Source: Xanthomonas translucens pv. translucens DSM 18974
Lineage (GTDB): Bacteria > Pseudomonadota > Gammaproteobacteria > Xanthomonadales > Xanthomonadaceae
Direction: 5' to 3'
NCBI RefSeq assembly: GCF_000331775.1
Contig: NZ_CAPJ01000155.1
Location: 1-55,714 of the forward strand
Length of the DNA: 55,714 bases
The position numbers were made by a program, and so were the translations under genes. A model generated the notes under the pieces. The model searched no databases. It was not told the origin of the DNA and was given only the letters and a program-made list of their open reading frames with translations. Of this stretch, positions 11,511-46,195 are shown piece by piece; positions within the stretch are counted from its first letter, which is position 1, and each line of letters opens with the position of its first letter.

Positions 11511-11580
11511 GCCGCTTGCGCACTTCCGGGACGATGTGCCGGCTGCGCCGCGACAGGGCGCGTCGCAGCATGACCTTGCG

Positions 11581-18816: not shown

Positions 18817-19731
18817 TTACACAAGCTTCGCTTGCGCAGCCAGTTCGCCGATCACGCGGCGCAGGCCATCGCGCCACTGCGGCAACACCAGCGAAAAATC
18901 GCGTTGCAGCCTGGACACGTCCAGCCGCGAATACGCCGGGCGCTTGGCCGGGGTCGGATATTCGGCCGTGGCGATCGGCAGCACGCGCGGCGCGCGCGCC
19001 AGCAGGCCCGCAGCGAGCGCTTCTTCGAAGATCGCCTCGGCGAAGCCGTGCCAGGTGGTCTCGCCGGCGGCGGTCAGGTGCCAGGTCCCCGATTGCGCGG
19101 CAGTGCGCTGCGCGAGGACTTGCGCGGTGACATCGGCGATCAACCCTGCCGGCGTCGGCGTGCCCAGCTGATCGGCGACTACGCGCAGTTCGTCGCGCTC
19201 GGCACCGACGCGCAGCATGGTGCGCAGGAAGTTGCTGCCATGCGCGGCATAGACCCAAGCGGTACGCAAGATCAGGTGCTGCGCGCCGGACGCGCGGATC
19301 GCGGCTTCGCCGGCGAGCTTGGTCGCGCCATATGCGCCGAGCGGCGCGGTCGGCGCGTCCTCCGGATATGGGCGGCTGCCCTGGCCATCGAACACGTAAT
19401 CGGTGGAGTAATGCACCATCGGCACGCCATGCGCTGCACACCAGCCGGCGATCGCCGCGGGCGCCTCGGCGTTGGCGCGCAAGGCCGCGTCGCGCTCCTG
19501 TTCGGCGCGATCCACCGCGGTATAGGCCGCCGCATTGACCACGGCGCTCGGCTGCAGCCGATCCAGCAACGCGCCCAGCGTGTGCGGCTGGTCGAAGTCG
19601 GCGGTCTCGCAGGCGCTGCCGTCGGGCAGGCGTCCACTGCGCGTGGTCGCCAGCAACGGCCCGCATGCGCCCAGCGCGCGCAGCAGCTCCTGGCCGACCT
19701 GGCCGTTGGCACCAAACACCAGTGTGGTCAC
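18817..19731 (-). CDS. rmlD: dTDP-4-dehydrorhamnose reductase
   Basis: Last enzyme of dTDP-L-rhamnose synthesis, reducing the 4-keto group with NAD(P)H; 304 aa. The Rossmann motif is FGANGQVGQELL at the N-terminus, followed by NAAAYTAVDRAE, the YSTDYVFDG strand, and the SDR catalytic pair in YGATK. The start is a GTG at 19731 whose last bases overlap the rmlC stop (GTGA), so translation is coupled. The frame extends a further 122 codons upstream, but that part is a shadow of rmlC. Last gene of the rmlBACD operon. Confidence 0.95.
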   Translation of the reverse strand: MTTLVFGANGQVGQELLRALGACGPLLATTRSGRLPDGSACETADFDQPHTLGALLDRLQPSAVVNAAAYTAVDRAEQERDAALRANAEAPAAIAGWCAAHGVPMVHYSTDYVFDGQGSRPYPEDAPTAPLGAYGATKLAGEAAIRASGAQHLILRTAWVYAAHGSNFLRTMLRVGAERDELRVVADQLGTPTPAGLIADVTAQVLAQRTAAQSGTWHLTAAGETTWHGFAEAIFEEALAAGLLARAPRVLPIATAEYPTPAKRPAYSRLDVSRLQRDFSLVLPQWRDGLRRVIGELAAQAKLV

Positions 19732-20285
19732 GGCGCGTACACCGGCAAACGCTCGGCCGCGATGTCGGCCAGGAACGGGGCCACCGCATCCTTGGCCGAC
19801 AGCAGCGGCTGGCTGATCGGCCAGTCCACGCCGATCGCCGCGTCGTCCCAGCGCACGCCGGCGTCGGCTTCCTTCACGTACACGTCGGTGCACAGATAGC
19901 TGAACACCGCACGCTCGGACAGCACCGCGAAGCCATGGGCGAAGCCTTCCGGGATCCAGAACTGCTTCTTGTTCTCCGCGCTCAGCACCACCGCTGCCCA
20001 GCGACCGAACTGCGGCGAGCCGCGGCGGATGTCCACGGCGACGTCGTAGACCTCGCCTTCCAGCACGCTGACCAGCTTGCCCTGCGGGCGCGGCCATTGG
20101 TAATGCAGCCCGCGCAGCACGCCCTTGGCCGAGGTCGAGACGTTGCTCTGCACGAAGTTGGTCGGCAGCCCGTGCTGGCCGAAACGCTCGGCGTTCCAGG
20201 TCTCGAAGAAATAGCCGCGTTCGTCGCCGAACACCGCCGGCTCGATCACCACGCAGCCGGGCAGATGGGTTTCAATCACTTTCAC
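19728..20285 (-). CDS. rmlC: dTDP-4-dehydrorhamnose 3,5-epimerase
   Basis: Cupin epimerase of 185 aa that inverts C3 and C5 of dTDP-4-keto-6-deoxyglucose. Family motifs are present: the N-terminal [26 protein letters not shown], the active-site RGLHYQ with its catalytic histidine, and [11 protein letters not shown]. The start overlaps the rmlA stop by ATGA and its own stop overlaps the rmlD GTG, so rmlA, rmlC and rmlD are translationally coupled. The length is normal for the family. Confidence 0.96.
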
Positions 20286-21169
20286 GGAACGGTTCCTCGG
20301 ACAGCCAGTTCATGCAGATATTTGCCGTAGTCGTTCTTCAACAGCGGCGCGGCGAGTTTCTCCAGCTGCACGGCATCGATCCAGCCCTGGCCGAATGCGA
20401 TCTCCTCGGGGCAGCACACCTGCAGCCCCTGTCGCGACTGGATGGTCTCGATGAAGTTGGAGGCCTCGTGCAGCGACTGGTGGGTGCCGGTATCCAGCCA
20501 GGCGTAGCCGCGGCCCAGCGGTTCCAGGTGCAGTTCGCCCGCGTCCAGGTAACGGCGGTTGAGATCGGTGATTTCCAGCTCCCCGCGCGGCGAGGGGGTC
20601 AATGCGGCGGCGTGCTCGCTGGCCTGGCCGTCGTAGAAGTACAGGCCGGTGACCGCGTAGTTGGAGCGCGGCTGCGCCGGCTTTTCGGCGATGTCGATGA
20701 CCTTGCCGGCCTGGTCGAACTCGGCCACGCCATAGCGCTCCGGGTCGTTGACCCAGTAGCCGAACACGGTGGCGCCGTGCTGCCGCGCATCGGCGCGGCG
20801 CAGGGTCTCGGTCAGGCCATGGCCGTGGAAGATGTTGTCGCCCAGCACCAGGCAGCTCGGCTTGCCGTCGATGAAATCGCGGCCGATCAGGTAGGCCTGC
20901 GCCAGTCCGTCCGGGCTCGGCTGCACCGCGTATTCGAGCTGCATGCCCCACTGCGAGCCGTCGCCCAGCAGCGCACGGAACAAGGCCTGCTCGTGCGGGG
21001 TGTTGATGATCAGCACCTCGCGGATGCCGGCCAGCATCAGCACGCTGAGCGGGTAATAGATCATCGGCTTGTCGTACACCGGCAGCAGCTGCTTGCTGAC
21101 GCCCTTGGTGATCGGATACAGCCGGGTGCCGGAGCCGCCGGCCAGGATGATGCCTTTGCGTTGGGTCAT
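20282..21169 (-). CDS. rmlA: Glucose-1-phosphate thymidylyltransferase
   Basis: First enzyme of the dTDP-rhamnose pathway, joining dTTP and glucose-1-P; 295 aa from the ATG at 21169 ([19 protein letters not shown]). The nucleotide-binding signature [18 protein letters not shown] is intact, as are [11 protein letters not shown] and [12 protein letters not shown]. It is usually feedback-inhibited by dTDP-rhamnose. A frame extension to 21196 would read through an intergenic palindrome and is not used. It lies 57 bases downstream of rmlB. Confidence 0.96.
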
Positions 21170-21188
21170 GAGGTGCTTCCTAGGAAGT

Positions 21189-21206
21189 CCGCACATCGAT
21201 GTGCGG
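21189..21206. repeat. 18-bp perfect palindrome between rmlB and rmlA
   Basis: ccgcacatcgatgtgcgg equals its own reverse complement and lies in the only sizeable gap of the rml operon. There is no T run, so it is not a standard terminator. It could be an mRNA hairpin that tunes rmlA relative to rmlB, or a protein-binding site. Confidence 0.7.
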
Positions 21207-21226
21207 GCTCTTGCGAGGGACTCGCG

Positions 21227-22282
21227 TTATGCCGCCGTGCCGATGCGTTCCAGCCGATAGCTGCCGTCGAGCACGCCCTGTACCCAGGCCTGGTTGGCCA
21301 GGTACCAGTCCACGGTGATGGCGATGCCCTGCTCGAAGCTGTACTTCGGCTCCCAGCCCAGTGCGTTCTTCAGCTTGGACGCATCGATCGCATAGCGCCG
21401 GTCGTGGCCGGGGCGGTCGGCGACATGGGTGATCTGGCTGGCGCGCGGCTGGCCGTCGGCGCGCGGGCGGCGCGCATCGAGCAGCGCGCAGATCGCCTGC
21501 ACCACCTCGATGTTCTGCTTCTCGGAGTTGCCGCCGACGTTGTAGGTCTCGCCGACCCGGCCCTTGGCCAGCACGGTGCGGATCGCCTCGCAATGGTCGC
21601 CGACGAACAGCCAGTCGCGCACCTGCTTGCCGTCGCCGTAGACCGGCAGCGGCTCGCCGGCCAGCGCCTTGGCGATCACCAGCGGCACCAGCTTCTCGGG
21701 GAAGTGGTACGGGCCGTAGTTGTTGGAGCAGTTGGTGGTCAGCACCGGCAGGCCGTAGGTGTGGTGGAACGCGCGCACCAGGTGGTCGGAGGCGGCCTTG
21801 GAGGCCGAATACGGCGAATTGGGCGCGTACGGCGTGGTCTCGGAGAACTTGCCGGTCTCGCCGAGCGTGCCGTAGACCTCGTCGGTGGAGACGTGCAGGA
21901 AACGGAACGCGGCGCGCGGCGCTTCCGGCAGCGCCTTCCAATGGTCGCGCACCGCTTCCAGCAGGCCCAGGGTGCCGACCACGTTGGTCTGGATGAAGGC
22001 GCCGGGGCCGTCGATCGAGCGGTCCACATGGCTCTCGGCGGCGAAGTTCAGCACGGCGTCGGGCTGATGCTCGCGCAGCAGTTGGGCGACCAGCGCGCGG
22101 TCGCCGATATCGCCCTGCACGAAGACGTGGTCGGGATTGCCCTCCAGCGACGCCAACGTGTTCAGATTGCCGGCGTAGGTCAAGGCGTCCAGATTGATCA
22201 CGCGCACGCCGCGCGACACCGCCTCCAGCACGAAATTGCCGCCGATGAACCCGGCGCCGCCGGTTACAAGCCAAGTAGCCAC
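21227..22282 (-). CDS. rmlB: dTDP-glucose 4,6-dehydratase
   Basis: Second enzyme of the dTDP-rhamnose pathway, 351 aa from a GTG start at 22282. The start is supported by AGGAG nine bases upstream and by the N-terminus [14 protein letters not shown]. Motifs are the Rossmann [25 protein letters not shown], the active-site STDEVYG, and the [13 protein letters not shown] pair. It is the first gene of the rmlBACD operon, divergent from etfB across a 237-base gap. The very long open frame upstream to 23251 overlaps etfB and is a shadow. Confidence 0.95.
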
Positions 22283-22519
22283 TGTGACGTCTCCTGATCG
22301 GGCGCTGCGACGCGCTCCACTGTCCGAACCGAACAGCATATACGCTTTCCCCGGGATGGTCGCCTGCGCCTGCTGTGCCGGGTTCAGGCTGAGGCGGCCG
22401 CCTCCGGCGAACACCATACGCCATCGCATGGCCCGCCGCCGCCGGTTAGAATCCACCGACTGCCCCGTGCCAGCCGCCGCGGCCGGGCCTCCCCGCACTG
22501 CTGAAGGATCTCGTACAAG

Positions 22520-23266: not shown

Positions 23267-24222
23267 TGGCCAAGATCCTCGTCGTCGCCGAACACCTGAA
23301 CGGCCAGCTCAACGCGGCCACTGCCAAGACCGTCAGCGCCGCGCAGGCGTTGTCGCCGGAAGCCATCGACATCGTGGTGCTGGCCGCCGACCCGGCCGCC
23401 GTTGCCGCGCAGGCCGCGCAGATCGCCGGCGTGCGCCGCGTGCTCACCGTCGCCGACCCGGCCAACGCACACGCCATCGCGCAGGTGCTTGGGCCGCAGA
23501 TCGCGCAGCTGGCGCAGGGCTACAGCCACGTGTTCGGCCCCTCCACCACCTTCGGCAAGGACCTGATGCCGGTGGTCGCCGCGCTGCTCGGGGTCAACCA
23601 GATCTCCGACCTGATGGCGGTCGATGGCGACTACGCGTTCAAGCGCCCGATCTACGCCGGCAACGCGATCATCAGCGTGCAGGCGCCCGCCGACCAGACC
23701 GTGGTCGCCACCGTGCGCAGCGCCTCGTGGCCGGAAGCGGCCCGCTCCCGTGAAAGTGATAGCGGCAGCGCCGCGATCGAAGCGGCCAGCGTGAGCGCCA
23801 CGCTGCCCACTCACACCCGCTTCGTCGGCCTGGCCGCCGGCACCTCCGACCGCCCCGATCTGCAGAGCGCCAAGCGTGTGGTCTCCGGCGGCCGCGGCGT
23901 GGGCTCGGCGGAGAATTTCCAGATCATCTACACGCTGGCCGACAAGCTCGGCGCCGCGGTCGGCGCCTCGCGCGCGGCGGTGGATGCCGGCTACGTGCCC
24001 AACGAACTGCAGGTCGGCCAGACCGGCAAGATCATCGCACCGGACCTGTACGTGGCGGTGGGCATCTCCGGCGCGATCCAGCACCTGACCGGGATCAAGG
24101 ACGCCGGCACCATCGTGGCGATCAACAAGGACCCGGAATCGCCGATCTTCGAGATCGCCGACATCGGGCTGGTGGGTGACTTGTTCACCTTGCTCCCGGA
24201 ACTGGAAACGGCACTGGGCTGA
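23266..24222 (+). CDS. etfA: Electron transfer flavoprotein alpha subunit
   Basis: ETF alpha subunit of 318 aa, with FAD held in its C-terminal domain. The N-terminus [16 protein letters not shown] follows directly on etfB. The C-terminal FAD domain shows [35 protein letters not shown] and [20 protein letters not shown], all diagnostic. Together with EtfB it feeds the ETF-QO encoded at 9867-11510. It is the traditional flank of the Xanthomonas LPS locus, and the next gene begins 16 bases later. Confidence 0.96.
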
Positions 24223-24238
24223 TGCCGATGCGGCTCCG

Positions 24239-25228
24239 ATGACCTCGCTGCCGCCCCCCGGCGCCGACGGCATGCCGATGCCGCGGCGGCGGCGCCTGGA
24301 CCACCTGGCCGGGTTCGTGCTGCTGTTGTGCGCGGGCTATGTGGCCACGCTGTTCTGGGTGGACCGCGGCAACGGGACGTTCTCGCGCCTGAGCGAGGTC
24401 GGCCAGTTGATGGCGCTGGCCACCTTGCCGGTCAGCGCCAGCTACCTGTTCCGCTACTGGCGCTGGCGCTGGCTGCTGCAGCGTTACGGCCATCCAGTGC
24501 CGTTCGGCGCCGGGCTGGCCGGCTACCTGGCCGGCTTCGCGTTGACCGCAACGCCGGGCAAGGCCGGCGAATTGCTGCGTATCCGCTATTTCGCCCGCAT
24601 CGGCGTACCGGCGCGGCGCACCATCGCCGTGTTCGTGTTCGAGCGCGCCTCCGATCTGCTGGTAATCCTGGCGCTGTCGCTGCTGGCCGCGCCGGTCTTT
24701 CCTACCCTGGGCGTGCTTGCGGCAGTGGTCCTGGCCTTCGTTGGCCTGTTGTTTGGCGCGGCCGCATGGCCGCCGTTGCTGGATCGGCTGACCGCGCTGG
24801 TGCGGTGGATTCCCGGCCGCTGGCTGCAGCGCCCGGCGCAGTTCGCGCTGGCCGCGGCGCTGGAGCTGCGCGGCTGCCTGGGTGCGCGCCAATTCGGGCA
24901 AAGCATGGTCGCCGGAGTGGTGGCCTGGGGCCTGACCTCCCTGGTGTTCGTGGGTCTGTGCCTGGGGATGGGCCTGCAGCTGGATCCCATCGTGGCGTTC
25001 GGCATCTACCCGCTGGCGATGCTGGTCGGCGCGCTGTCCTTCGTGCCAGGCGGCGTCGGCACCACCGAACTGGCGATCGTGCTGATGCTCGACCGCCTCG
25101 GCATCGCCACCGCCGATGCGATCGCCGTGGCGGTGGCGGCGCGCCTGGTCACGCTGTGGTACGCCATTGTGGTCGGCGCGCTGGCGATGATCCGGGCCGA
25201 GTTGCTGCCTCGCGACAAGGCCGTTTGA
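24239..25228 (+). CDS. LPG-synthase-TM family membrane protein (flippase-like)
   Basis: Polytopic inner-membrane protein of about 329 aa matching the lysylphosphatidylglycerol-synthase transmembrane family (UPF0104, AglD/flippase-like). Evidence is the early [15 protein letters not shown] motif (conserved PGKxGE), [18 protein letters not shown], and the late [18 protein letters not shown] motif (PGGxGxxE), with about eight hydrophobic segments. Members are thought to translocate lipid-linked sugars or lipids. It lies between etfA and the HAD-UbiA gene, so moving a polyprenyl-phosphate pentose is an attractive but unproven role. The start could also be the ATG at 24272. Confidence 0.82.
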
Positions 25229-25276: not shown

Positions 25277-26725
25277 ATGCCCGTCCCCTCCAGTCCCACG
25301 CCCCACCCTCCGACAGTTTCGGGGCGCGCCCTGTGCGTGGATCTGGATGGCACCCTGCTGAACTCGGACATTCTCTACGAGTCGGTGCTGGCGCTGCTGG
25401 CACGCAATCCGCTGTACCTGTTCCTGCTGCCGCTGTGGTTGCTGCGCGGCAAGGCGGCACTGAAGCGCGAACTGGCCTCGCGCGTCACCTTGCCGGCCGA
25501 GACCCTGCCCTACAACGAGCAAGTGCTGGAACTGCTGCGCACCACCACGCAGCGTCCGCGCGTGCTGTGCACCGCCTCCGATGCCTTGCTGGTGACGCCG
25601 ATCGCCGAGTATCTGGGCCTGTTCGAGCAGGTGATCGCCAGCGACGGCAAACGCAATCTCTCCGGGCGCAACAAGGCCGATGTCCTGGTCGAAGCGTTCG
25701 GCGCCGGCAATTTCGACTACGCCGGCAACGGCAGCGTGGACCTGCACGTGTGGGAGAAGGCGGGCGGCGCCTGGGTCGTCAACAATGGCAGCGCGCTCAG
25801 CAAGGCCGCCGCGCAGCGCACCACGGTGCACGCGCATTGGCCCGCGCCGCCGCGCGCCCGCGCCTGGCTGAAGGCGCTGCGGCTGCACCAGTGGCTGAAG
25901 AACCTGCTGGTGTTCGTCCCGCTGCTGACCGCGCATCGCTTCCTGGATCCGGAGTCGGTGCTGCAGGCGGCGATCGCGCTGGTCGCGTTCGGCTTGTGCG
26001 CCTCCGGCGTGTACGTGCTGAACGATTTACTCGATCTCACCCCGGACCGGCAGCATCCGCGCAAGCGCAAGCGCCCGTTCGCCGCCGGCCGTCTTCCGCT
26101 GCTGCACGGCGTGTTCGCCGCTGCGGCGCTGACCGTGGCCGGACTCGCGCTGTCGCTGGCCTGCAACCTGGAATTCACCCTGGTGCTGCTGGCCTATTAC
26201 GTGATGACGCTGGCGTACTCGCTGCAGCTGAAGCGGATCGTGATGATCGACGTGGTGTTGCTGGCGGCGCTGTACACGGTGCGCATCATCGGCGGCGCGA
26301 TGGCGATCGGCGTCGAACTGTCGTTCTGGCTGCTGGCCTTCTCGATGTTCATCTTCCTGTCGCTGGCCCTGCTCAAGCGCTATACCGAGTTGCACGCGAT
26401 GCTCAGCAGCGGCAAGACCAAGGCCAGCGGACGCGCCTACTCGGTGGAGGACCTGTCGCTGCTGCAGTCGATGGGTGCCGCCGCCGGCTACATCGCGGTG
26501 ATGGTAATGGCGCTGTACATCAACAGCCCGGAGAGCGTGGAGTTGTACAGCCACCCGAAGGTGCTCTGGCTGGTCTGTCCGGTGCTGCTGTACTGGGTGA
26601 GCCGGGTCTGGGTGATCGCGCACCGCGGCGACATGCACGACGACCCGATCGTGTTCGCCGCCACCGACCGGGTCAGCCAAGTGGTGGTGGTGCTGTGCGG
26701 ACTGTTCGCGCTGAGCGCGATCTGA
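25277..26725 (+). CDS. HAD phosphatase-UbiA fusion, probable polyprenyl-P phosphoribosyltransferase
   Basis: Fusion protein of 482 aa. Residues about 18-190 are a HAD-type phosphatase (CVDLDGTLLNSD, D22 and D24). Residues about 200-482 are a UbiA-family prenyltransferase with nine hydrophobic segments. The first Asp motif is NDLLDLTPDRQHPRKRKRP (249-267) and the second is around Y314, K319 and D325. The NDxxDxxxDRxHPxKxxRP form is that of 5-phosphoribosyl-1-pyrophosphate:decaprenyl-phosphate transferase (Rv3806c) rather than ubiquinone-pathway UbiA. The HAD half would then be the 5'-phosphatase that mycobacteria encode separately. DprE1- and DprE2-like genes follow directly, with the stop overlapping the next start by one base (TGATG), which supports the reading. 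Confidence 0.82.
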   Translation: MPVPSSPTPHPPTVSGRALCVDLDGTLLNSDILYESVLALLARNPLYLFLLPLWLLRGKAALKRELASRVTLPAETLPYNEQVLELLRTTTQRPRVLCTASDALLVTPIAEYLGLFEQVIASDGKRNLSGRNKADVLVEAFGAGNFDYAGNGSVDLHVWEKAGGAWVVNNGSALSKAAAQRTTVHAHWPAPPRARAWLKALRLHQWLKNLLVFVPLLTAHRFLDPESVLQAAIALVAFGLCASGVYVLNDLLDLTPDRQHPRKRKRPFAAGRLPLLHGVFAAAALTVAGLALSLACNLEFTLVLLAYYVMTLAYSLQLKRIVMIDVVLLAALYTVRIIGGAMAIGVELSFWLLAFSMFIFLSLALLKRYTELHAMLSSGKTKASGRAYSVEDLSLLQSMGAAAGYIAVMVMALYINSPESVELYSHPKVLWLVCPVLLYWVSRVWVIAHRGDMHDDPIVFAATDRVSQVVVVLCGLFALSAI

Positions 26726-28032
26726 TGTCGGACGCGGGGCAATCCTGGGGGCGCTATCCGAAGGCGACGCAGACCTTGCTGCCGGTCACCGACCGCGCGG
26801 CGAACCTGCCGCCATTCGACGGCCACGCGCTGCCGCGCGGCAACGGCCGCAGCTATGGCGACAGTTGCCTGAATCCGGACGGCACGTTACTGGGAACGCG
26901 CAGCCTGGACCGGTTCATCGGCTTCGATCCGGCAACCGGCCTGCTGCGCTGCGAAGCCGGGGTCACCCTGGCCGAGATCATCGACCTGGCCTTGCCGCAG
27001 GGCTGGTTCCTGCCGGTGACCCCGGGCACCCGCTACGTGACCGTGGCCGGCGCCATCGCCAACGACGTGCACGGCAAGAATCACCACCGCACCGGCAGCT
27101 TCGGCCACCACGTGCGCGCCTTCGAACTGCTGCGCAGCGACGGCACGCGCCGCCTGTGCAGCCCCGACGACGACGCCGAAGGCTGGTTCGCGGCCACCGT
27201 CGGCGGCCTCGGATTGACCGGCCTGATCACCTGGGCGCAGATCCAATTGCGGCGGGTCGCGAGCGCCGCGCTGGAAACGGAGAACATCCGTTTCGGTTCG
27301 CTCGACGAGTTCTTCGCCTTGTCGGCGGCCTCCGCCGACAGCCACGAATACAGCGTCGCCTGGATCGACTGCCTGGCCAGCGGCCGCGCGCGCGGCCGCG
27401 GCCACTTCACCCGCGCCGACCATTGCCCGGTCCTGCCGGAAGAACGGCCCAAGCCCCCGGGCGCAGGCCTGCCGATGCCGCTGACGCCGCCATTCTCGCT
27501 GGTCAACCAGCTGTCGCTGCGGCCGTTCAACGCGCTGTACTTCTGGCGCCAGCCTGCGCCGCGCAAGCGCGCGGTCAGCCACTTGCTGCCGTTCTTCTAT
27601 CCGCTGGACGGCATCCGCAACTGGAATCGCATGTACGGCCCGGCCGGTTTCCTGCAGTACCAGTGCGTGCTGCCGCCGGCCGCCTCGCGCGACGGCATCG
27701 ACGCGTTGCTGGCGGAGATCGCGCGCAGCGGCAGCGGCTCGTTCCTGGCGGTGCTGAAGGAATTCGGCGCCGCGCGCGCGCTGGGCATGCTGTCGTTTCC
27801 GCGCCCGGGCACCACCCTGGCGCTGGATTTCCCCAATAGCGGCCCGGACGTCTTCCGGCTGCTGGAGCGGCTGGACCGCATCGTCGACGCGGCCGGCGGC
27901 GCTCTGTACCCTGCCAAGGACGCGCGCATGAGCGCGGCGTCGTTCCAGCGCGCCTACGGCCGCTGGCAGGAATTCAGCCATTACCTCGATCCACGCTTTT
28001 CTTCCGGCTTCTGGCGCCGGGTCACGGAGTAG
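26725..28032 (+). CDS. DprE1-like FAD-dependent polyprenyl-P-ribose 2'-oxidase
   Basis: Flavoprotein of 435 aa, probably oxidising C2' of polyprenyl-phosphoryl-ribose, the first half of epimerisation to arabinose. It matches Mycobacterium DprE1 along its length: RGNGRSYGDSCLN, NDVHGKNHHRTGSFGHHVR, WFAATVGGLGLTG, FYPLDGIRNWNRMYGPAGF and LYPAKDAR with the catalytic lysine (K398). At the position of mycobacterial Cys387 (WNICVDFP) this protein reads TTLALDFP, i.e. Ala366. It lies between the UbiA fusion and the DprE2-like SDR with 1-bp overlap and 2-bp spacing. An unrelated FAD-linked sugar oxidase is the alternative, but the match is strong. Confidence 0.87.
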   Translation: MSDAGQSWGRYPKATQTLLPVTDRAANLPPFDGHALPRGNGRSYGDSCLNPDGTLLGTRSLDRFIGFDPATGLLRCEAGVTLAEIIDLALPQGWFLPVTPGTRYVTVAGAIANDVHGKNHHRTGSFGHHVRAFELLRSDGTRRLCSPDDDAEGWFAATVGGLGLTGLITWAQIQLRRVASAALETENIRFGSLDEFFALSAASADSHEYSVAWIDCLASGRARGRGHFTRADHCPVLPEERPKPPGAGLPMPLTPPFSLVNQLSLRPFNALYFWRQPAPRKRAVSHLLPFFYPLDGIRNWNRMYGPAGFLQYQCVLPPAASRDGIDALLAEIARSGSGSFLAVLKEFGAARALGMLSFPRPGTTLALDFPNSGPDVFRLLERLDRIVDAAGGALYPAKDARMSAASFQRAYGRWQEFSHYLDPRFSSGFWRRVTE

Positions 28033-28034
28033 CC

Positions 28035-28763
28035 ATGCAACGCGTCCTCATCATCGGTGCCACCTCGGCCATCGCCGAAGCCACTGCCCGACGCTACGCC
28101 GCACGCGGCGCGGCGATCCACCTGCTCGGCCGCCAGGCCGCGCGCCTGGAGGCGATCGCGGCCGACCTGTCGGTGCGCGGCGCCAGGAGCAGCAGCGGCG
28201 TGCTCGACGTCAACGACGGCGCGCAGCACGGCGCCGCGTTCGACGCGGCATGGTCGGCGCTCGGCGGCGTGGACGTGGTTCTGATCGCGCATGGCACCCT
28301 GCCGGACCAGGCCGCGTGCGACGCCTCGGTCGAGCTGTCGCTGCGCGAGTTCGCCACCAACGGCACCTCCACGATCGCGCTGTGCGCGGCGCTGGCGCCG
28401 CGCCTGGCGGCTGGTGCGACGCTGGCGGTGATCTCCTCGGTCGCCGGCGACCGCGGCCGCGCCAGCAACTACCTGTACGGCAGCGCCAAGGCTGCGGTCA
28501 GCGCCTATCTCAGCGGCCTCGGCCAGCGCCTGCGCCCGGCCGGGATCAACGTGCTCACGATCAAGCCCGGCTTCGTCGACACGCCGATGACCGCCGCCTT
28601 CAAAAAGGGCGCACTGTGGGCCAAGCCCGACCAGATCGCCCAGGGCATCGTCCGCGCCGTCGATCGGCGGCGTGCCGTCGTTTATCTGCCGGGGTTCTGG
28701 TGGGCGATCATGTTCATCATCACGTCCATCCCCGAGTTCGTTTTCCGCAGGATCAAGCTCTGA
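28035..28763 (+). CDS. DprE2-like short-chain dehydrogenase
   Basis: SDR of 242 aa, predicted to reduce the 2'-keto intermediate made by the DprE1-like enzyme and so yield polyprenyl-phosphoryl-D-arabinofuranose. The nucleotide motif is IGATSAIAEATARRYA, the catalytic serine lies in VISSVAGDRG, and YGSAK supplies Tyr and Lys. The C-terminus is hydrophobic (FWWAIMFIITSIPEFVFRRIKL), as in mycobacterial DprE2, suggesting membrane association near its lipid substrate. It starts 2 bases after the DprE1-like stop and ends 1 base before the next gene. SDR specificity is assigned mainly from context. Confidence 0.8.
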   Translation: MQRVLIIGATSAIAEATARRYAARGAAIHLLGRQAARLEAIAADLSVRGARSSSGVLDVNDGAQHGAAFDAAWSALGGVDVVLIAHGTLPDQAACDASVELSLREFATNGTSTIALCAALAPRLAAGATLAVISSVAGDRGRASNYLYGSAKAAVSAYLSGLGQRLRPAGINVLTIKPGFVDTPMTAAFKKGALWAKPDQIAQGIVRAVDRRRAVVYLPGFWWAIMFIITSIPEFVFRRIKL

Positions 28764-28764
28764 C

Positions 28765-29709
28765 ATGACCGACAAACACGCCAAGATCGTCATCACCGGA
28801 GCCGCCGGGCTGGTCGGACAGAACCTGATCGTCGAACTCGAAGAGCAGGGGTACACCCAACTGGTGGCGATCGACAAGCACGCGCACAACCTGCAGATCC
28901 TGCGCGAGCTGCATCCGGCGGTGCGCGTGGTGCATGCGGATCTGGCCGAGCCCGGCGACTGGGCGCGCGAATTCGACGGCGCCGCCTGCGTCGCCCAACT
29001 GCACGCGCAGATCACCGGCAAGACCACCGCGCTGTTCACCCGCAACAACCTGGTGGCCACCTCGCACGTGCTCGACGCCTGCCGCGCAGCCAAGGTGCCG
29101 TACCTGGTCCACATCAGTTCCTCGGTGGTGAACTCGGTGGCGAAGGACGACTACACCAACACCAAACGCGCGCAGGAAGAAATGGTGGTGGCCAGCGGCC
29201 TGCGCCACTGCGTGCTGCGCCCGACCCTGATGTTCGGCTGGTTCGATCCCAAGCACCTGGGCTGGCTGTCGCGCTTCATGGCCAAGACCCCCGTGTTCCC
29301 GATTCCCGGCGACGGCAGGTTCATGCGCCAGCCGCTGTACGAGCGCGACTTCTGCCGCTGCATCGCCAAATGCATCGAACGCGAGCCCGACGGCGAGGTC
29401 TACGACATCGTCGGCGACACCCGCGTGGATTACGTGGACATCATCAAGACGATCAAGCGGGTCAAGAAGCTGCGTACGCTCATCGTGCATATCCCAATCG
29501 GGTTCTTTGCCTTCCTGTTGCGCGTGTATTCGCTGTTCAGCGCAAAGCCGCCGTTCACCGCCGACCAGCTCAAAGCGCTCAGCGCCGGCGATGACTTCAA
29601 GGGTATCGATACCGAAGCGGTATTCGGCGTACGCCAGACGCCGTTCGAGGACGCGATCCGTGAGAGTTACACCGATCCGCGGTATAGCCGTATCGTGCTG
29701 CAGCGCTGA
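28765..29709 (+). CDS. NAD-dependent epimerase/dehydratase family protein
   Basis: Extended-SDR protein of 314 aa from the ATG at 28765. The Rossmann motif is ITGAAGLVGQNLI, with ISSSVVN for the catalytic serine position and YTNTK giving the Tyr-x3-Lys pair. The C-terminal part includes a hydrophobic stretch (VHIPIGFFAFLLRVYSLF) suggesting membrane contact. It resembles 3-beta-hydroxysteroid dehydrogenase-like/sugar epimerase proteins found in glycan loci. It is the fifth gene of the tight plus-strand operon after the DprE2-like gene. The substrate is unknown; a sugar or a lipid-linked sugar is likely from context. Confidence 0.75.
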   Translation: MTDKHAKIVITGAAGLVGQNLIVELEEQGYTQLVAIDKHAHNLQILRELHPAVRVVHADLAEPGDWAREFDGAACVAQLHAQITGKTTALFTRNNLVATSHVLDACRAAKVPYLVHISSSVVNSVAKDDYTNTKRAQEEMVVASGLRHCVLRPTLMFGWFDPKHLGWLSRFMAKTPVFPIPGDGRFMRQPLYERDFCRCIAKCIEREPDGEVYDIVGDTRVDYVDIIKTIKRVKKLRTLIVHIPIGFFAFLLRVYSLFSAKPPFTADQLKALSAGDDFKGIDTEAVFGVRQTPFEDAIRESYTDPRYSRIVLQR

Positions 29710-29724: not shown

Positions 29725-30759
29725 ATGAACCCACGCAGCGACGACCGGATCGACTTGAGGAGATACGATCTCGGCTTGTTCTTGCTTGCTTTCGCGCTGG
29801 TCTGCCTGAAATCCAATGATGCCCTGGCGCATCCGCAGTTGTGGGCGGAAGACGCCGTTCTTTTCTTGAAAGACCAACTGGAACAGCGGGGACTGCTGCT
29901 GTTCAGCCCATACGCAGGCTATCTGCACGCCGCGCCGCGGCTGGTGACATGGTTCGCGTCCTTCGTCAGCGCGGCCTACACGCCGCTGATCTACAACGCC
30001 AGCGCGATCGCGATCGCCGCCGGGTCGATCTTCATTTGCGCCAAGAACCTGCGCCCGCTGATTCCGCCGTAGCTGTTTCTGGCTGCGTTCTTGCTCACTC
30101 CCACGAATGGGAAGGTGTTCGGCACGATCACCAACATGCAAGGGTTCCTGCAGTTTCCACTGATCACCTACTGTTTCATCGCCCCGAAAGCCAGCAACCC
30201 GATAAGCAGACACCTGCTCAGGGGCGTGCTTGCCGTCGCCGCGTTGACCGGCCCCTTCTCGATCATCTGCATTGCGCTGATGGCGTTGAGCTTCTTTGGC
30301 TTTCTCGTCCTGCGCGTCAGCAGGCGTTCGAACCTGCTCTCCAGTGCTACCGCCTACTTCGAACAGCGCGACTTCATCCTCTTTCCGGCGGCCCGTATTG
30401 GCGTGTTTCTCGCCCTGGCTTTCGCAATCCTCGAAGTCTTCGCCGCAGCGCACAAGTTCACCGTCGAGCCGATGCTGTCGCTGCTTCACGGCGACCGTTA
30501 TTTCTTCGCGTTGAAGATCGTCTTCTGGTGGACCGTCTTCATCTGCCTGAAAGACCTGTTTGGCAGCGAACGGCAAGGCGCCAACTGCACGCTGCTATTG
30601 CTGCTGTTTATCTGCCTGTTGAACAAGGACCACATGCTGCGGCCACGCTTTATCGACTACGGACCCGCCGCAGAACTGCGCAAACTCGACCAGCCGGGCT
30701 CGCATACCATCAAGTTCAACCCGGCAGGCTGGGAAACCACCATCACCCCGAAGCAATGA
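29725..30759 (+). pseudogene. GT-C-like membrane protein interrupted by an amber codon
   Basis: One continuous frame of 344 codons broken only by TAG at 30070-30072 (codon 116). The part before the stop has the GT-C-like entry loop WAEDAVLFLKDQLEQ followed by PYAGYLHAAPRLVTWFAS, typical of large membrane glycosyltransferases that use polyprenyl-phosphate sugars. The part after it continues in the same frame with several membrane helices and a soluble C-terminus ending TITPKQ. A single CAG-to-TAG change would restore the frame. No other damage is visible, so the lesion is recent, is a sequencing error, or is suppressed. The local base composition is near 50-55% GC, lower than its neighbours, which suggests foreign origin. 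Confidence 0.75.
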
Positions 30760-31087
30760 CGCCTGCCCTGGCGGGAGGCCGAAGCCACACATGCGCCATT
30801 TCCATGCGGGGCAAGGCGCGGGGACGGGTATCCGATAAGCGGAAAGCGGCAACGATGTGACCGGCGTTGACACGGGAGCATGCGCCAGTACCGGTGTGTG
30901 CGGCGTACGGCGCGGCGTACCACGTCACGTTCATTGAAGGTATATTCCATTTTTTGCTGCATGCACGCTGGCTGCTCCGCTCTCGCCCCGGATGCCGCCG
31001 GGAAAACCAATGCTTCGCCCGCTGCGCGACGGCATCCGCGCGCCCCTTGCCAGAGCGCCTGCTCGCTCACTTTTCGAAGAAACGTCC
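30760..31087. other. 328-bp gap with no gene found
   Basis: Lies between the two interrupted membrane-protein genes. It holds no convincing ORF and no RNA gene that I recognise. A TTGACA occurs at 30867-30872 but no matching -10 follows at normal spacing. A short AT-rich stretch (tatattccattttttg) lies at 30941-30956. It may be remnant DNA from rearrangement of the locus. Confidence 0.5.
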
Positions 31088-33223
31088 ATGTTCCGCCTAT
31101 TTCATAAATGGCATGCGATTGTCATCCTGAGCATGTCGCTGCTCGCATGCCAGCAGTCTCCGCAGCCCAACCTCGTGCAGGACGGCGGCTGCCCGCCGCA
31201 GCACTCGCCCTATCTCAAGCAGGCGCCGAGCGTCGACGGGCGCATCACCTACTGCGACCAGGGCGACGCTTCCACCGGCCAGATCAGCACAACCGCATAC
31301 CCCGCCGGGACGCGCCGCGTCACCGTGATGATGGCCGGGTATCCGGCGACCGAGGGCGTGCGCGTGCTGGCGGTCGCCACCGATGGCAGTTTCACTTCGG
31401 CCTTGAAGACGGACAACATCGGCGACAGCTGGAAGCCGGTCACCCTGCAATTGCCCGAGGCGGCCCAGACGCACGCGTTCTACCTTCGACTGGTCGACGA
31501 CGCCACCGGCACGTTCGGCTGGGCAGGCCTGGGCTTGGAGCATGCCGGGCTGGCCACGACGCTGCCGACCCATGCGCTGCCGATGGCGTTGGCGATCCTG
31601 ACCGCGCATCTGTGGCTGATCCTCGCCGGCTGGCTGCTGCCACGAACATGGACGGTGCCGGCGCGGGCGCTGTGCGCGCTCCTAGCGCTCGGCACCGCCT
31701 CGGCGTGCGTCATTGCCGGCTACATTGCCTCTCCCGCCCTCGGCGCAATCATCGCCTATGGCGCTGCCGCACTGCCGTTGCTTGCGTTGCCGCTGCGGCG
31801 GCGCCGTGGAGCGGCGCCGCTGGCCGAGGCCACTGCGCTGCACCGCCTGTTCTTTCCCTCGTTGCTGCTGGCATTGCTGATTCTCTGGATCGGACTCTAT
31901 CCGTTTTCATGGGACGGGCAGGACTGGCAGACGGCCGCCACGCGTTGGCGCAACCTGCCGATGGACTCGTGGCTGCCGCTCACCTTCGCCGACATGGTTG
32001 CGGCCGGGCGCCTGGACGTGCCGATGATCGGCGACTGGCTGAGCAGCGATCGGCCGCCGCTGCAGTCGGGCCTGTACCTGCTGTTCTTCCATTCCTGGCT
32101 AGCGCACGGCGGCTTGATCTATCAGGCCCTGTCGACGTGAGCGCAAGCGCTGGTCATCGTGCCGTTGCTCGTCCTGGTCGGCAATCTGCCGCGGCGATCG
32201 CAACGCGCCGCGATCGTCTTCGCGCTCGCGCTGTCTCCGCTGGTGCTGCTCAATGGCCTGTTCGTGTGGCCCAAGCTCTTCGCGGCGACGTTCTGCGCCA
32301 TCTTCCACATCGCCCTGTTCGGGCCGTCCAGCATCGCCCGGCCGGCGCGCTGGCCAATGGCCGGGCTGGCTGCAGCCTTGGCCATGCTGTCGCATGGCGG
32401 CGCGCTGTTCGCCCTGGTGGGCTCCACGGCCGCCTTCGTGCTGCTGAAACGCCGCCAGGCGTTGCCGGTGCTGTTCAAGACCGGCGCCCTTGCGGTGGCG
32501 GCCTACCTGCCTTGGGTCGCCTACCAGCGCCTCATCGACCCACCAGGCGACCGACTGCTGAAATGGCATTTCGCCGGGCACATCCCGGTTACGCAGGACT
32601 CGTTCTTGCACGTGCTGCGTGCGGCCTATGCCGATCTCGGCTTGTGGCCATGGCTCGCCGGGCGCGCCTCCAACCTGAACAGTCTGGTGCATGGCAGCTT
32701 CAGCTTTTTCGGCGACGTATGGACACTGTTCTGGAATCGCAGCCCGGCCGCGATCGCCACCGTCGTGGAGAACAGCTTTTTCTACGGCGCGTATTCGATG
32801 TGGTTCGCATCGCCGCTGTGGTTGTTGCCCTGCGTTGCCTATGCGTTGGTCAAGCGCCGCAGCCTGCGCCCGGTGCGCTTTCCCTCCGACCTGGCGCTCG
32901 CGGCGGCACTGTCGTTCCTGTTCTGGATCCTGGTGATCTACGAGCCAGGGCAGACGGTCATTCATCAAGGCGCCTACTTCAGCTTCTTGGCGAGCATGCT
33001 GGTGATCCTGCTGATGCTGGCTCAATGCTTCCCGCTGGCGCTATACGCCGTTGTCGCGCTCAATCTCGCGGTGGCTGCGCTCGCCTACGCCTTCGACAAG
33101 CCTTTCGACGGTGCATCCTCCGCGATCCATCTCGGCACCACGCTGGCACTGACCGGCGGCTTGCTCGCCGCCTGCAGGCTGGCTTCAGCGGAAACCATGG
33201 ACGACGAGCGTCGTCGGTGTTGA
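31088..33223 (+). pseudogene. Large GT-C-like membrane protein interrupted by an opal codon
   Basis: One frame of 711 codons broken only by TGA at 32138-32140 (codon 351), flanked by YQALST and AQALVIVPLL; TGG would restore it. The N-terminus has an apparent lipobox (MSLLAC, Cys21), then a soluble beta-rich domain of about 120 residues (DASTGQISTTAYPAGTRR, and FYLRLVDDATGTFGWAGLGL), then many hydrophobic segments. The GT-C-like catalytic loop is PFSWDGQDWQTAATRW with IGDWLSSDRPPLQSGLYLL. The second fragment continues with further helices and a periplasmic loop. It is probably a glycosyltransferase or polymerase acting in the periplasm, inactivated as read. The full open length on both sides argues for recent inactivation or an assembly error. 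Confidence 0.75.
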
Positions 33224-33531: not shown

Positions 33532-34836
33532 ATGACCTCAAAGAAGCACTACGCGATCGTCGGCGCCGGCCCCATGGGCCTGATGGCGGCCGTGCGGCTC
33601 CTCGACGCCGGCCACAGCGTGGACATCTACGAACGCGACGACCGCATCGGCGGCATGTCCGCCACCTTCGATTTCGATGGCCTTCCGATCGAGCGCTACT
33701 ACCACTTCATCTGCAAGACCGACGATCCGCTGTTCGCACTGCTGGGCCGTTACGGCCTGTCCGACAAGCTGCATTGGACGGATACCAAGATGGGTTATTT
33801 CTATAACGGAACGCTCTACAAGTGGGGAACGCCGTTCGCCTTGCTGGGCTTCCCGCATCTTGGGCCGATCAGCAAGTTGCGCTACGCGCTGCACGTCATG
33901 TACACCAAGGGCATCAAGGACTGGACGGCGCTGGACAAGGTCAATGCGACCACGTGGATCCGCAAGTGGATCGGCGACAAGGCGTACGACGTGATGTGGA
34001 AGGACGCATTCCGGCTGAAGTTCTTCGAGTACCGGGACAATCTTTCCGCCAGCTGGATCGGCACGCGCATCAAGCGCATCGCGTTGTCGCGGCGCAGCCT
34101 CATGCACGAAAGCCTGGGCTACCTGGATGGCGGCTCGATGACCCTGCTCGACAAGATGGCCGCAGACATCACCGCCCGCGGCGGTCGCATTCTGCTGTCG
34201 CAGGGCATCGACGAAGTCGTCAGCGAAAACGGCAGCGTCAGCGGCGTGCGCGCCGGCGGCCAGTTCGTTGCCTACGATGGCGTGGTCTCCACGGCCCCCA
34301 TCCAATACGTGCCGGCGATGGTGCCGGGCCTGCCGCCCGATTTCAGCGCCCAGATCCGCGCCATCGAAAATATTCCGGTCGCCTGCGTCATCCTCAAACT
34401 GAAGCAACCGGTCAGCGAAAACTTCTGGATGAACATCAGCGACCCGAGCATCGCGATCCCGGGCGTGATCGAGTACAGCAACCTCAACCCCACCACGCCG
34501 CCGGGGCAGAAGATCCTGTACGCCCCGTTCTACATGCCCAAGACCCACCCGAAATGGAGCATGAGCAATGACGCGCTGATCGAAGAAGTGCTTGGCTATC
34601 TGCCGAAGCTCAATCCCTCCTTCGAGCGTGACTGGGTGCTGGCAACCCACTGCCACCGCTATGAATTCGCGCAGACGATCTGCCCGCCAGGCTTCCAGGA
34701 TCGCCTCCCGGCGATGCGCACGCCGCTGAACGGGTTTTTCATGGCCGACACTGCCTATTACTACCCTGAGGACCGTTCGATCTCCGAGAGCCTGCAAGCG
34801 GCGGACCGCTTGGCAGAAGCCGTGCTTCAGGCATGA
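33532..34836 (+). CDS. FAD/NAD(P)-binding oxidoreductase, amine-oxidase or mutase-like
   Basis: Cytoplasmic flavoprotein of 434 aa from the ATG at 33532. The N-terminal dinucleotide fold AIVGAGPMGLMAAVRLLDAGHSV ends in an acidic residue, YERDDRIGGMSA, the hallmark of the amine oxidase/protoporphyrinogen oxidase/UDP-galactopyranose mutase group. IERYYHFICKTDDPLFALL and the C-terminal NGFFMADTAYYYPEDRSIS complete the fold. Members occur in O-antigen and exopolysaccharide loci, but their reactions are mostly unknown; a mutase or a desaturase role are both possible. The stop overlaps the GtrA start by ATGA, tying it to the GtrA and GT-C genes downstream. Confidence 0.78.
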   Translation: MTSKKHYAIVGAGPMGLMAAVRLLDAGHSVDIYERDDRIGGMSATFDFDGLPIERYYHFICKTDDPLFALLGRYGLSDKLHWTDTKMGYFYNGTLYKWGTPFALLGFPHLGPISKLRYALHVMYTKGIKDWTALDKVNATTWIRKWIGDKAYDVMWKDAFRLKFFEYRDNLSASWIGTRIKRIALSRRSLMHESLGYLDGGSMTLLDKMAADITARGGRILLSQGIDEVVSENGSVSGVRAGGQFVAYDGVVSTAPIQYVPAMVPGLPPDFSAQIRAIENIPVACVILKLKQPVSENFWMNISDPSIAIPGVIEYSNLNPTTPPGQKILYAPFYMPKTHPKWSMSNDALIEEVLGYLPKLNPSFERDWVLATHCHRYEFAQTICPPGFQDRLPAMRTPLNGFFMADTAYYYPEDRSISESLQAADRLAEAVLQA

Positions 34837-35234
34837 CATCGCGCAAGTTCATCAAGTTCCTGCTGGCGGGAGGGACCGCTGCCGCCGCCAACTTCGGTTC
34901 GCGCATCCTGCTCGGCCAGGTCATGCCGTACACATGGTCGATCGTGGTGGCCTATCTGATCGGCATGCTCACCGCGTTCGTGCTCAACCGCATGTTCGTG
35001 TTCGAAGCCGCCAGCACCGGCCTGAAGCACCAGGCCATCTGGTTCACCCTGATCAATATCGCCGCCGTGCTGCAGACGCTCGCCTGCAGCCTGGTCCTCG
35101 CACGCTGGATGTTTCCGGCGATGGGCATGCGCTTCCATCCTGAAACGCTGGCGCACGCGATCGGCGTGGCGGCGCCTGTGTTCACCAGCTACTTCGGCCA
35201 CAAGGCACTCACCTTCAAAGAGCGGCCAGCATGA
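34833..35234 (+). CDS. GtrA family membrane protein
   Basis: Small polytopic protein of 133 aa with four hydrophobic segments. It matches GtrA: FIKFLLAGGTAAAANFGSRILL at the start, YLIGMLTAFVLNRMFVF in the middle, and SYFGHKALTF at the end. GtrA proteins flip or help flip undecaprenyl-phosphate-linked sugars so that a GT-C enzyme can add them in the periplasm, as in O-antigen glucosylation. It overlaps the FAD gene upstream and the GT-C gene downstream by 4 bases each, suggesting the three act together. The next gene would be the transferase partner. Confidence 0.88.
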   Translation: MTSRKFIKFLLAGGTAAAANFGSRILLGQVMPYTWSIVVAYLIGMLTAFVLNRMFVFEAASTGLKHQAIWFTLINIAAVLQTLACSLVLARWMFPAMGMRFHPETLAHAIGVAAPVFTSYFGHKALTFKERPA

Positions 35235-36643
35235 ACGGAACTGACATGCAACATACACCTGACCGCCTGCGTCAGTTCCGGCCTGGTTCCGCCTGCTTGA
35301 TCGCGGTGGCCGTGGGCCTGGTCGCACTTGTCGTGCGCCTGCTCTACATCGAACACTTTGCCGTCAGCATGCCGTTCTGGGATCAATGGGACGCGGAAGG
35401 CGACCATCTGCTGAAACCGCTGCTGTCGGGCTCGCTAGGCTGGGCCGAGCTGTTGCATGCGCACAACGAACACCGGATCGTACCGACCAAGTTGGTGACG
35501 CTGGCGAGCTATCTGGCAACCGGGCAGTGGAACAACATCTACGAAGCCAGGATCAGCGCGGTGATCTACGCCACGATTCCCGCCATTCTGGTCTGGCACG
35601 GCATGCGCATCGGTGCTTCGCTGCGCTCGCGCGTGTTGTTGATTGCGGTGGCGATCTGCGCGGCGGTGCTGCCCTATTCCTGGGAGAACTTCCTAGTCGG
35701 CTTCCAGAGCCAGTTCTACTTCCTGATCCTGTTTGCCATCTTGGCGGTCTCGCTCGCCGCGGCAATGCATGAAAATCTCATCGCCATCTGCGGCGTTGTC
35801 TTGCTCTGCGTGATCAGCGTGCTCACCATGGCATCGGGCCTGCTGACGCCGGTCGCAGCGGCGGCCACCTATGCGCTGGCCGCCTGGCTGGTGCCCGGGC
35901 GCAGATGGCCGTCCGTCCTGGCCATTTGCCTGTTGCTGGCGATCGCCGTGCTGGCGTACAAAAGCATGCCGGTCATTCCCGAGCATGCCGTGATGCGCGC
36001 GCAATCCGCATTCGAGCTGTTTGGCGGACTGACCCGCGTGTTGAGCTGGCCGGTGCGCGGCATGCACGTGCCTGCGCTGCTGCTCTGGCTTCCCGGCGTG
36101 CTCGGCGTGGCATTGACGCTGCATGCCCGGCCAGCCACCAAGACCGACATTACGATGGCCGGCCTACTGGTCTGGGGCGGCCTGCAGGCCGCCGCCATTG
36201 CCTATGGGCGAGGCCACGACCTGGTGGAGCTGTCTCCGCGCTATACCGAGATTCTCATTCCCGGGTTGTTCGCCAATGCCTGGTTCGCCATCCGCCTGCT
36301 GCAACTGCGTCACGGCGTTCCTGGGCTGGTCCAACGCGGCACTTACGCGATGGCAGCACTGTTTACGCTCACCTTATTCGGTGGCTGGGCCGAGCGATTC
36401 CACGTCGATATGCAGGCGCTGCGCGCGCGCCACGAAGCCACGCAGGCGCAGGCGCAAGGCGTGCTGTACTACATCGCCTCCAAGGATGACGCAACGTTCG
36501 CAAGCGGGCAGTTGCCGCTGCCTTATCCCAATTCGCAGCGGCTACACCAGCTCCTGCAAGATCCGTATCTTCTCCAGGCGCTTTCCGGCAGCGACCGGCC
36601 CAGGCCGCTGGACAGCTTCACCTCGCCGAACGACGCGCGCTAG
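35231..36643 (+). CDS. Intact GT-C-like multi-spanning membrane protein
   Basis: Inner-membrane protein of 470 aa with about ten hydrophobic segments. The first periplasmic loop has the acidic GT-C-type motif PFWDQWDAEGDHLL followed by ELLHAHNEHRIVPTKLV, a form common in uncharacterised O-antigen-linked glycosyltransferases. A short soluble C-terminal region follows the last helix. It overlaps GtrA by ATGA, so it is likely the transferase served by that flippase. It is the only one of three such proteins in this block that is free of stop codons. Donor and acceptor are unknown; a lipid-linked pentose donor is suggested by the neighbouring DprE1/DprE2-like genes. Confidence 0.75.
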   Translation: MNGTDMQHTPDRLRQFRPGSACLIAVAVGLVALVVRLLYIEHFAVSMPFWDQWDAEGDHLLKPLLSGSLGWAELLHAHNEHRIVPTKLVTLASYLATGQWNNIYEARISAVIYATIPAILVWHGMRIGASLRSRVLLIAVAICAAVLPYSWENFLVGFQSQFYFLILFAILAVSLAAAMHENLIAICGVVLLCVISVLTMASGLLTPVAAAATYALAAWLVPGRRWPSVLAICLLLAIAVLAYKSMPVIPEHAVMRAQSAFELFGGLTRVLSWPVRGMHVPALLLWLPGVLGVALTLHARPATKTDITMAGLLVWGGLQAAAIAYGRGHDLVELSPRYTEILIPGLFANAWFAIRLLQLRHGVPGLVQRGTYAMAALFTLTLFGGWAERFHVDMQALRARHEATQAQAQGVLYYIASKDDATFASGQLPLPYPNSQRLHQLLQDPYLLQALSGSDRPRPLDSFTSPNDAR

Positions 36644-46194: not shown

Positions 46195-46195
46195 G

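What the first reader, a model, noticed from the sequence alone, without database searches (positions are those of the whole stretch)
25277..28763. Predicted lipid-linked D-arabinofuranose pathway inside an O-antigen locus
Three back-to-back genes encode a HAD-UbiA fusion, a DprE1-like oxidase and a DprE2-like reductase. In mycobacteria, Rv3806c (UbiA type), a phosphatase, DprE1 and DprE2 make decaprenyl-phosphoryl-arabinofuranose, the donor for arabinan. Here the UbiA Asp motif (NDLLDLTPDRQHP) and the DprE1 sequence match those enzymes, and the HAD half supplies a candidate phosphatase in the same chain. Surrounding genes encode two flippase-type proteins and three GT-C-like proteins. That combination predicts a periplasmic pathway adding D-arabinofuranose, or a related pentose, to LPS, pilin or another acceptor. 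Similar gene sets are known for Pseudomonas pilin arabinosylation; a role in Xanthomonas O-antigen would be new to me.
Basis: partly seen in the sequence, partly recalled or inferred. Interest (0 to 1): 0.82.

Follow-up and report, generated by a model that had tools for sequence, protein, structure and literature searches.

The report
Lipid-linked pentose pathway, probably for L-xylose
An O-antigen locus carries enzymes that build a pentose sugar on a membrane lipid, and a conserved extra trio of genes beside them suggests that the arabinose they make is only an intermediate on the way to the rare sugar L-xylose.

Summary
The three genes are as described: a HAD-UbiA fusion related to the mycobacterial phosphoribosyltransferase, a DprE1-like oxidase and a DprE2-like reductase, in an ABC-transporter O-antigen locus with L-rhamnose genes.
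In 369 genomes drawn from the class, DprE1 occurs in 69 and the epimerase in 13; all 13 also hold DprE1 and the flavoenzyme. Of the 80 best named loci, 65 hold the whole set in the fetched DNA.
I propose that lipid-linked D-arabinofuranose is an intermediate: the flavoenzyme recloses it as a pyranose and the epimerase inverts C4, giving lipid-linked L-xylose; an inverting GT-C would then give beta-L-Xylp, a side chain reported in Ralstonia (PMC10450222). Both added steps are inferred; the flavoenzyme's fold does not single out a mutase, and Ralstonia genes could not be checked. Two membrane-protein genes are interrupted here.

The parts
24176..25228 (+). LPG_synthase_TM / flippase-like membrane protein
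   Evidence: Pfam PF03706 E 1.5e-38; TIGR00374 over its cut-off
25277..26725 (+). HAD-UbiA fusion: predicted polyprenyl-phosphate phosphoribosyltransferase plus 5-phosphatase
26725..28032 (+). DprE1-like FAD oxidase
   Evidence: solved DprE1 E 1.8e-77; NCBIfam DprE1 370 bits, below cut-off 500
28035..28763 (+). DprE2-like SDR reductase
   Evidence: solved DprE2 E 1.7e-27; NCBIfam DprE2 168 bits, below cut-off 250
28765..29709 (+). Epim: extended-SDR NAD-dependent epimerase, proposed C4 epimerase of the lipid-linked pentose
   Evidence: Pfam Epimerase E 2.5e-21; GxxGxxG, SSS and YxxxK conserved in 10 aligned members; co-occurrence
29725..30759 (+). membrane-protein gene split by an in-frame stop (ORFs 29725-30072 and 30091-30759)
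   Evidence: no Pfam match of either piece
30992..33223 (+). membrane-protein gene split by an in-frame stop (ORFs 30992-32140 and 32159-33223)
   Evidence: no Pfam match of either piece
33532..34836 (+). FADox: flavoenzyme of NCBIfam NF005560, proposed furanose/pyranose mutase of the lipid-linked pentose
   Evidence: model pLDDT 90; fold; co-occurrence
34833..35234 (+). GtrA-family flippase candidate
   Evidence: Pfam PF04138 E 7.5e-18
35231..36643 (+). intact GT-C-fold glycosyltransferase candidate
18817..22285 (-). rmlB, rmlA, rmlC, rmlD: dTDP-L-rhamnose synthesis
   Evidence: four TIGRFAM equivalogs over their cut-offs
37227..43969 (-). two GT2 proteins and a methyltransferase protein: probable O-chain backbone synthesis and capping
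   Evidence: role inferred
44007..46242 (-). Wzt (with C-terminal Wzt_C domain) and Wzm: O-antigen ABC transporter

Best explanation
A three-component side-chain glycosylation system for an L-rhamnose O-antigen, extended by three genes. [quoted passage not shown] Step 2: the DprE1/DprE2-like pair inverts C2, giving undP-beta-D-arabinofuranose (homology). Step 3: FADox recloses the sugar as undP-beta-D-arabinopyranose (inferred). Step 4: Epim inverts C4, giving undP-alpha-L-xylopyranose (inferred). Step 5: GtrA, or the LPG_synthase_TM protein, flips the lipid (inferred from family). Step 6: the GT-C at 35231-36643 adds beta-L-xylopyranose to the exported chain (fold shown, activity and linkage inferred).
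For: Co-occurrence: in 369 class genomes Epim in 13, all 13 with DprE1 (69 in all) and with FADox (P 1.3e-10, genomes not independent). In the genus the 11 of 20 genomes with a close Epim (82-98% identity) all have HAD-UbiA, DprE1, DprE2, FADox and GtrA at the same locus. Plasmids: 7 of 7 Epim records have FADox beside it; four annotated ones from three classes show the exact order UbiA-DprE1-DprE2-Epim-FADox-GtrA. Best 80 named loci: 79 with FADox, 65 with all parts. Epim is a distinct family: in the plasmid collection hits fall from 50% to 30% identity with nothing between. Epim keeps the SDR catalytic residues. D-arabinose inverted at C4 is L-xylose, and the anomer works out as beta-L-Xylp with an inverting GT-C (logic only). 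R. solanacearum O-chains bear terminal beta-L-xylopyranose in a minor part of repeats (PMC10450222, passages); X. translucens LPS has rhamnose and xylose (PMC8042644, passage). Seven FADox homologues outside the module all lie in lipid-linked-sugar surroundings. GT-C fold.
Confidence: 0.45

Rival explanations
1. The end product is D-arabinofuranose; Epim, FADox and GtrA serve a second sugar that shares the locus.
For: DprE1 occurs without Epim in 56 of the 69 class genomes that have it, and one Xanthomonas-type locus (L030) has HAD-UbiA-DprE1-DprE2-GtrA only. PMC11127046 links DprE1/E2 homologues to arabinofuranose. FADox homologues occur in other lipid-linked-sugar loci without DprE1.
Against: Epim was not found without DprE1 in the 369 class genomes or in the 20 genus genomes, which an independent pathway would not require; the six genes keep one order in three classes of Proteobacteria.
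Confidence: 0.2
2. FADox is not a mutase but an oxidase or desaturase acting on the sugar or on the lipid, and Epim finishes that conversion; the product is an unknown modified pentose.
For: Fold ranking: phytoene desaturase and protoporphyrinogen oxidase above UDP-galactopyranose mutase. Profile matches are mostly desaturases and oxidases, with E. coli-type UGM (1i8t) at E 2.2e-6.
Against: Action on the lipid alone would not explain why FADox and Epim go together in 13 of 13 class genomes. The product would be a sugar I know from no glycan (recalled, not searched).
Confidence: 0.15
3. Epim is a C3 epimerase like ORF13 of C. youngae O2, so that C2 and C3 inversion together give lipid-linked D-lyxose (furanose, or pyranose after FADox).
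For: ORF13 is an SDR that inverts C3 of the lipid-linked pentofuranose (PMC11127046); this locus has both kinds of epimerase.
Against: [quoted passage not shown] ORF13 works without DprE1/E2 and without a flavoenzyme, unlike Epim in the genomes examined. The sequence of ORF13 was not available here, so kinship was not tested.
Confidence: 0.13

Closest known systems
Three-component pentofuranose systems of Citrobacter youngae O1/O2 (Kelly et al. 2024, PMC11127046)
   Same: HAD-UbiA fusion making lipid-linked ribofuranose from PRPP, auxiliary epimerase, flippase, GT-C, ABC-transporter O-antigen (paper)
   Different: Here DprE1/E2-like enzymes plus Epim and FADox, and GtrA in place of the small ORF14 transporter; the paper mentions Xanthomonas sets with several epimerases without assigning them
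Mycobacterial decaprenyl-phosphoryl-arabinose pathway (Rv3806c, DprE1, DprE2)
   Same: Homologous UbiA, DprE1 and DprE2
   Different: HAD phosphatase fused to UbiA; undecaprenyl expected; O-antigen side chain instead of cell-wall arabinan; two further enzymes
Pseudomonas pilin D-Araf glycosylation (TfpW systems; PMC11841053, passages)
   Same: Lipid-linked D-arabinofuranose and a GT-C
   Different: Acceptor is pilin; the passages I read mention no Epim/FADox pair
UDP-galactopyranose mutase
   Different: 16% identity, no UGM Pfam match at E 0.001, and two other flavoenzyme families score higher

Membership tests
Three-component pentofuranose glycosylation (PMC11127046) | UbiA-type polyprenyl-phosphate phosphoribosyltransferase with the N/D/D/D motif | tested here: met
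Three-component pentofuranose glycosylation (PMC11127046) | HAD phosphatase domain with its nucleophile Asp | tested here: met
   PF12710 E 4.3e-06, just over its cut-off; DLDGT invariant in 5 aligned relatives
Three-component pentofuranose glycosylation (PMC11127046) | flippase for the lipid-linked sugar in the locus | tested here: met
   GtrA and LPG_synthase_TM present; a different family from ORF14 of C. youngae, which the paper calls MATE
Three-component pentofuranose glycosylation (PMC11127046) | GT-C-fold glycosyltransferase | tested here: met
   for 35231-36643; membership in GT136 itself not tested
Three-component pentofuranose glycosylation (PMC11127046) | pentofuranose added to the O-chain | not testable with these tools
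   needs sugar analysis
NCBIfam DprE1 and DprE2 equivalogs | curated score cut-off | tested here: not met
   370 of 500 and 168 of 250 bits; hence named DprE1-like and DprE2-like
DprE1 and DprE2 relatives | best solved relatives are DprE1 and DprE2 | tested here: met
Extended-SDR sugar epimerases | GxxGxxG and YxxxK motifs | tested here: met
   10 sequences
Extended-SDR sugar epimerases | C4 epimerase activity on a lipid-linked pentopyranose | not testable with these tools
   needs an enzyme assay
UDP-galactopyranose mutase | UGM sequence family (Pfam GLF, name recalled) | tested here: inconclusive
   no such match at E 0.001, while a profile of 5 relatives matches UGM 1i8t at E 2.2e-6
UDP-galactopyranose mutase | fold | tested here: inconclusive
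UDP-galactopyranose mutase | furanose/pyranose isomerase activity | not testable with these tools
   needs an enzyme assay

The most novel reading that the evidence does not exclude
A widespread six-gene module (HAD-UbiA, DprE1-like, DprE2-like, Epim, FADox, GtrA) is a biosynthetic route to L-xylose: built from PRPP entirely on undecaprenyl phosphate, with a ring-changing flavoenzyme and a C4 epimerase that work on a lipid-linked sugar instead of a nucleotide sugar, and with mycobacterial-type arabinofuranose as an intermediate rather than the product.
Probability: 0.42. Interest if true: 0.8.

Novelty: new variant of a known kind. Interest (0 to 1): 0.62.

Why it matters
In the papers searched here (open-licence PubMed Central only) I found no biosynthetic route to L-xylose and no paper linking it to DprE1 or to a lipid-linked mutase. 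If right, one gene set would explain a rare sugar on the surface of plant-associated bacteria, name substrates for two enzyme groups without an assigned role, extend sugar remodelling on polyprenyl phosphate beyond C2 and C3, and give a genome marker for predicting O-antigen composition. The module is common (530 stretches in one-genome-per-species data encode an Epim relative), so the claim is quick to test.

Tried and rejected
Considered and dropped: (1) Ubiquinone-type UbiA: rejected by scores. (2) Epim as a chance neighbour: rejected by co-occurrence. (3) Calling FADox a proven mutase: the fold does not decide. (4) FADox as strictly tied to DprE1: at the NF005560 cut-off it is not. In the genus 14 of 20 genomes are over it, the 11 with Epim plus G005, G017 and G018; in the class 17 of 369, the 13 with Epim plus G026, G044, G187 and G234; of 14 named control genomes Haloferax volcanii and Methanosarcina acetivorans. 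The seven are distant (24-35% identity). G005, G017, G018 and G026 have a GT2 gene directly before FADox; the best NCBIfam models for two of these GT2s are ArnC and PgfS, both below cut-off (L201 by tblastn only). G187 and G234 have GT2-epimerase-FADox in a row, the GT2s only weakly like PgfS. G044 has an LPG_synthase_TM gene and a 654-aa protein on either side.

Led nowhere: viral contigs and phages gave no relatives. Ralstonia was not reached: accession numbers recalled for R. pickettii plasmids and a Ralstonia phage were not held, and 'of' does not take a locus. The paper search for R. solanacearum with these genes gave nothing useful.

Rows left out or unlike the rest: of the 69 DprE1 genomes, 40 regions were fetched and compared; 8 of the 40 show Epim-FADox-GtrA with the DprE genes. 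The other Epim genomes: G001 is L019; G036 was not fetched but has the three on one contig; G305 and G366 have Epim-FADox away from DprE1; G052 has them on three contigs. For the FADox model 64 of 76 usable sequences were aligned, for the GT-C 20 of 21. The genome-contig scan kept 80 of 530, those nearest to Burkholderia stagnalis. The 15 of 80 without the full set: 6 with Epim-FADox-GtrA only, 2 Epim-FADox, 1 UbiA-Epim-FADox, 2 without HAD-UbiA, 2 without GtrA, 1 with only a distant DprE2 hit beside the trio, 1 Epim alone; 12 of the 15 are cut short by contig ends. Whole genomes were checked for 4 of them (L142, L160, L169, L196): DprE1 in 4 of 4; HAD-UbiA at E below 1e-130 in 3, in L142's genome only a UbiA match at E 3.7e-28.

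Papers: PMC11127046 parts 1-5 of 8 read plus passages. Passages only: PMC10450222, PMC4878081, PMC8042644, PMC2238763, PMC4902059, PMC7816849, PMC3391215, PMC9040725, PMC12826051, PMC3364877, PMC11841053. Others: search listings only. L-xylose in further Xanthomonas O-antigens is recalled, not read.
Full report
What is there. Three + strand genes lie back to back at 25277-28763. The first encodes an N-terminal HAD domain and a UbiA domain. Its UbiA half matches the solved decaprenyl-phosphate phosphoribosyltransferase (E 1.4e-27) and scores 171 bits with that NCBIfam family (cut-off 207) against 26 bits with ubiquinone UbiA. The second matches solved DprE1 (E 1.8e-77). The best solved match of the third is DprE2 (E 1.7e-27). 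Both fall short of the NCBIfam equivalog cut-offs, so I call them DprE1-like and DprE2-like. The locus is an O-antigen locus of the ABC-transporter type: rmlBACD, two GT2 proteins, a methyltransferase protein, Wzt with a Wzt_C domain and Wzm.

What the literature already holds. Kelly et al. 2024 (PMC11127046, parts 1-5 of 8 read) showed in Citrobacter youngae that such a HAD-UbiA protein makes lipid-linked ribofuranose from PRPP, that a GT-C adds it to the exported O-chain, and that an SDR (ORF13) turns it into xylofuranose. They predict DprE1/E2 homologues for arabinofuranose-containing glycans and say that more elaborate systems with multiple candidate epimerases or GT-Cs were found in Xanthomonas and warrant investigation. 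An earlier paper lists the same genes for Xoo BXO8, with orthologues in Xac 306, under names such as protoporphyrinogen oxidase and epimerase (PMC2238763, passages).

Epim and FADox are tied to the arabinose genes. In the genus, 14 of 20 genomes have HAD-UbiA and 11 a close Epim (82-98% identity; the other 9 only weak SDR matches). These 11 have HAD-UbiA, DprE1, DprE2, Epim, FADox and GtrA at one locus; L030 has HAD-UbiA-DprE1-DprE2 with a GtrA but no Epim or FADox; two have HAD-UbiA alone. In 369 genomes drawn from the class, DprE1 was found in 69 (E 1e-40), Epim in 13 (E 1e-30) and FADox in 14 (E 1e-60): the same 13 and one at 28% identity. All 13 are among the 69 (P 1.3e-10; the genomes are related, so this is only a guide). 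In most of the 13 the genes adjoin; in G305 and G366 the pair lies away from DprE1 and in G052 the three are on separate contigs. Among plasmid records 7 of 7 with Epim have FADox beside it; four annotated ones, from Burkholderia, Agrobacterium, Rhizobium and a Rhodobacteraceae bacterium, show the order UbiA-DprE1-DprE2-Epim-FADox-GtrA. A scan of one genome per species found 530 stretches encoding a relative of Epim; the best 80 were kept. Of these 79 hold FADox and 65 the complete set in the fetched DNA. Four incomplete loci were checked in their whole genomes: DprE1 in 4 of 4, HAD-UbiA in 3 and a plain UbiA in the fourth.

Why L-xylose. D-arabinose inverted at C4 is L-xylose. From undP-beta-D-arabinose this gives the alpha-L-xylopyranosyl phosphate, and an inverting GT-C gives beta-L-xylopyranose (logic only). 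R. solanacearum O-chains carry terminal beta-L-xylose, in pyranose form, on a chain of L-rhamnose and GlcNAc in a minor part of the repeats (PMC10450222, passages). X. translucens LPS contains rhamnose and xylose (PMC8042644, passage; configuration not given). Lyxofuranose, the C3 alternative, is in no solved structure according to PMC11127046.

Limits. The link to Ralstonia genes could not be tested, and Ralstonia is not among the best 80 loci. The window's own assembly is not held and I saw no sugar data for it. Steps 3 and 4 are inferences. The two interrupted membrane genes could mean that part of the decoration is lost in this strain, or be sequencing errors.

Verdict. Odds: L-xylose route 0.45, D-arabinofuranose as end product 0.2, other flavoenzyme chemistry 0.15, lyxose 0.13, the rest something else.

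Noticed in passing
29725-30759 and 30992-33223: Two membrane-protein genes are each split by an in-frame stop codon here, while the near relative L019 has uninterrupted ORFs of 416 and 743 aa.
   Followed up: partly
26725-28032: In the alignment to solved DprE1 the segment PGWNVCVDFP reads PGTTLALDFP here, so the Cys in that segment (the inhibitor-binding Cys387 of M. tuberculosis, number recalled) is not conserved.
   Followed up: no
11536-14412: A 958-aa protein with an RgpF (rhamnan synthesis F) domain lies on the far side of the rml genes; its role was not examined.
   Followed up: no
L200 7857-12597, L201, L202, L203 8026-10270: Distant FADox homologues follow a GT2 gene; in L200-L202 a roughly 675-aa membrane protein comes next. 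This looks like another lipid-linked-sugar system with the same kind of flavoenzyme.
   Followed up: partly
L222 and control genomes: NF005560 also rings over its cut-off in Haloferax volcanii and Methanosarcina acetivorans, so this flavoenzyme family is not confined to bacteria.
   Followed up: no
L021 5460-6194, L023 5452-6182: About 730 bases separate DprE2 and Epim in these two relatives; in Xoo BXO8 a methyltransferase ORF sits at that place (PMC2238763), which could mean an O-methylated pentose.
   Followed up: no
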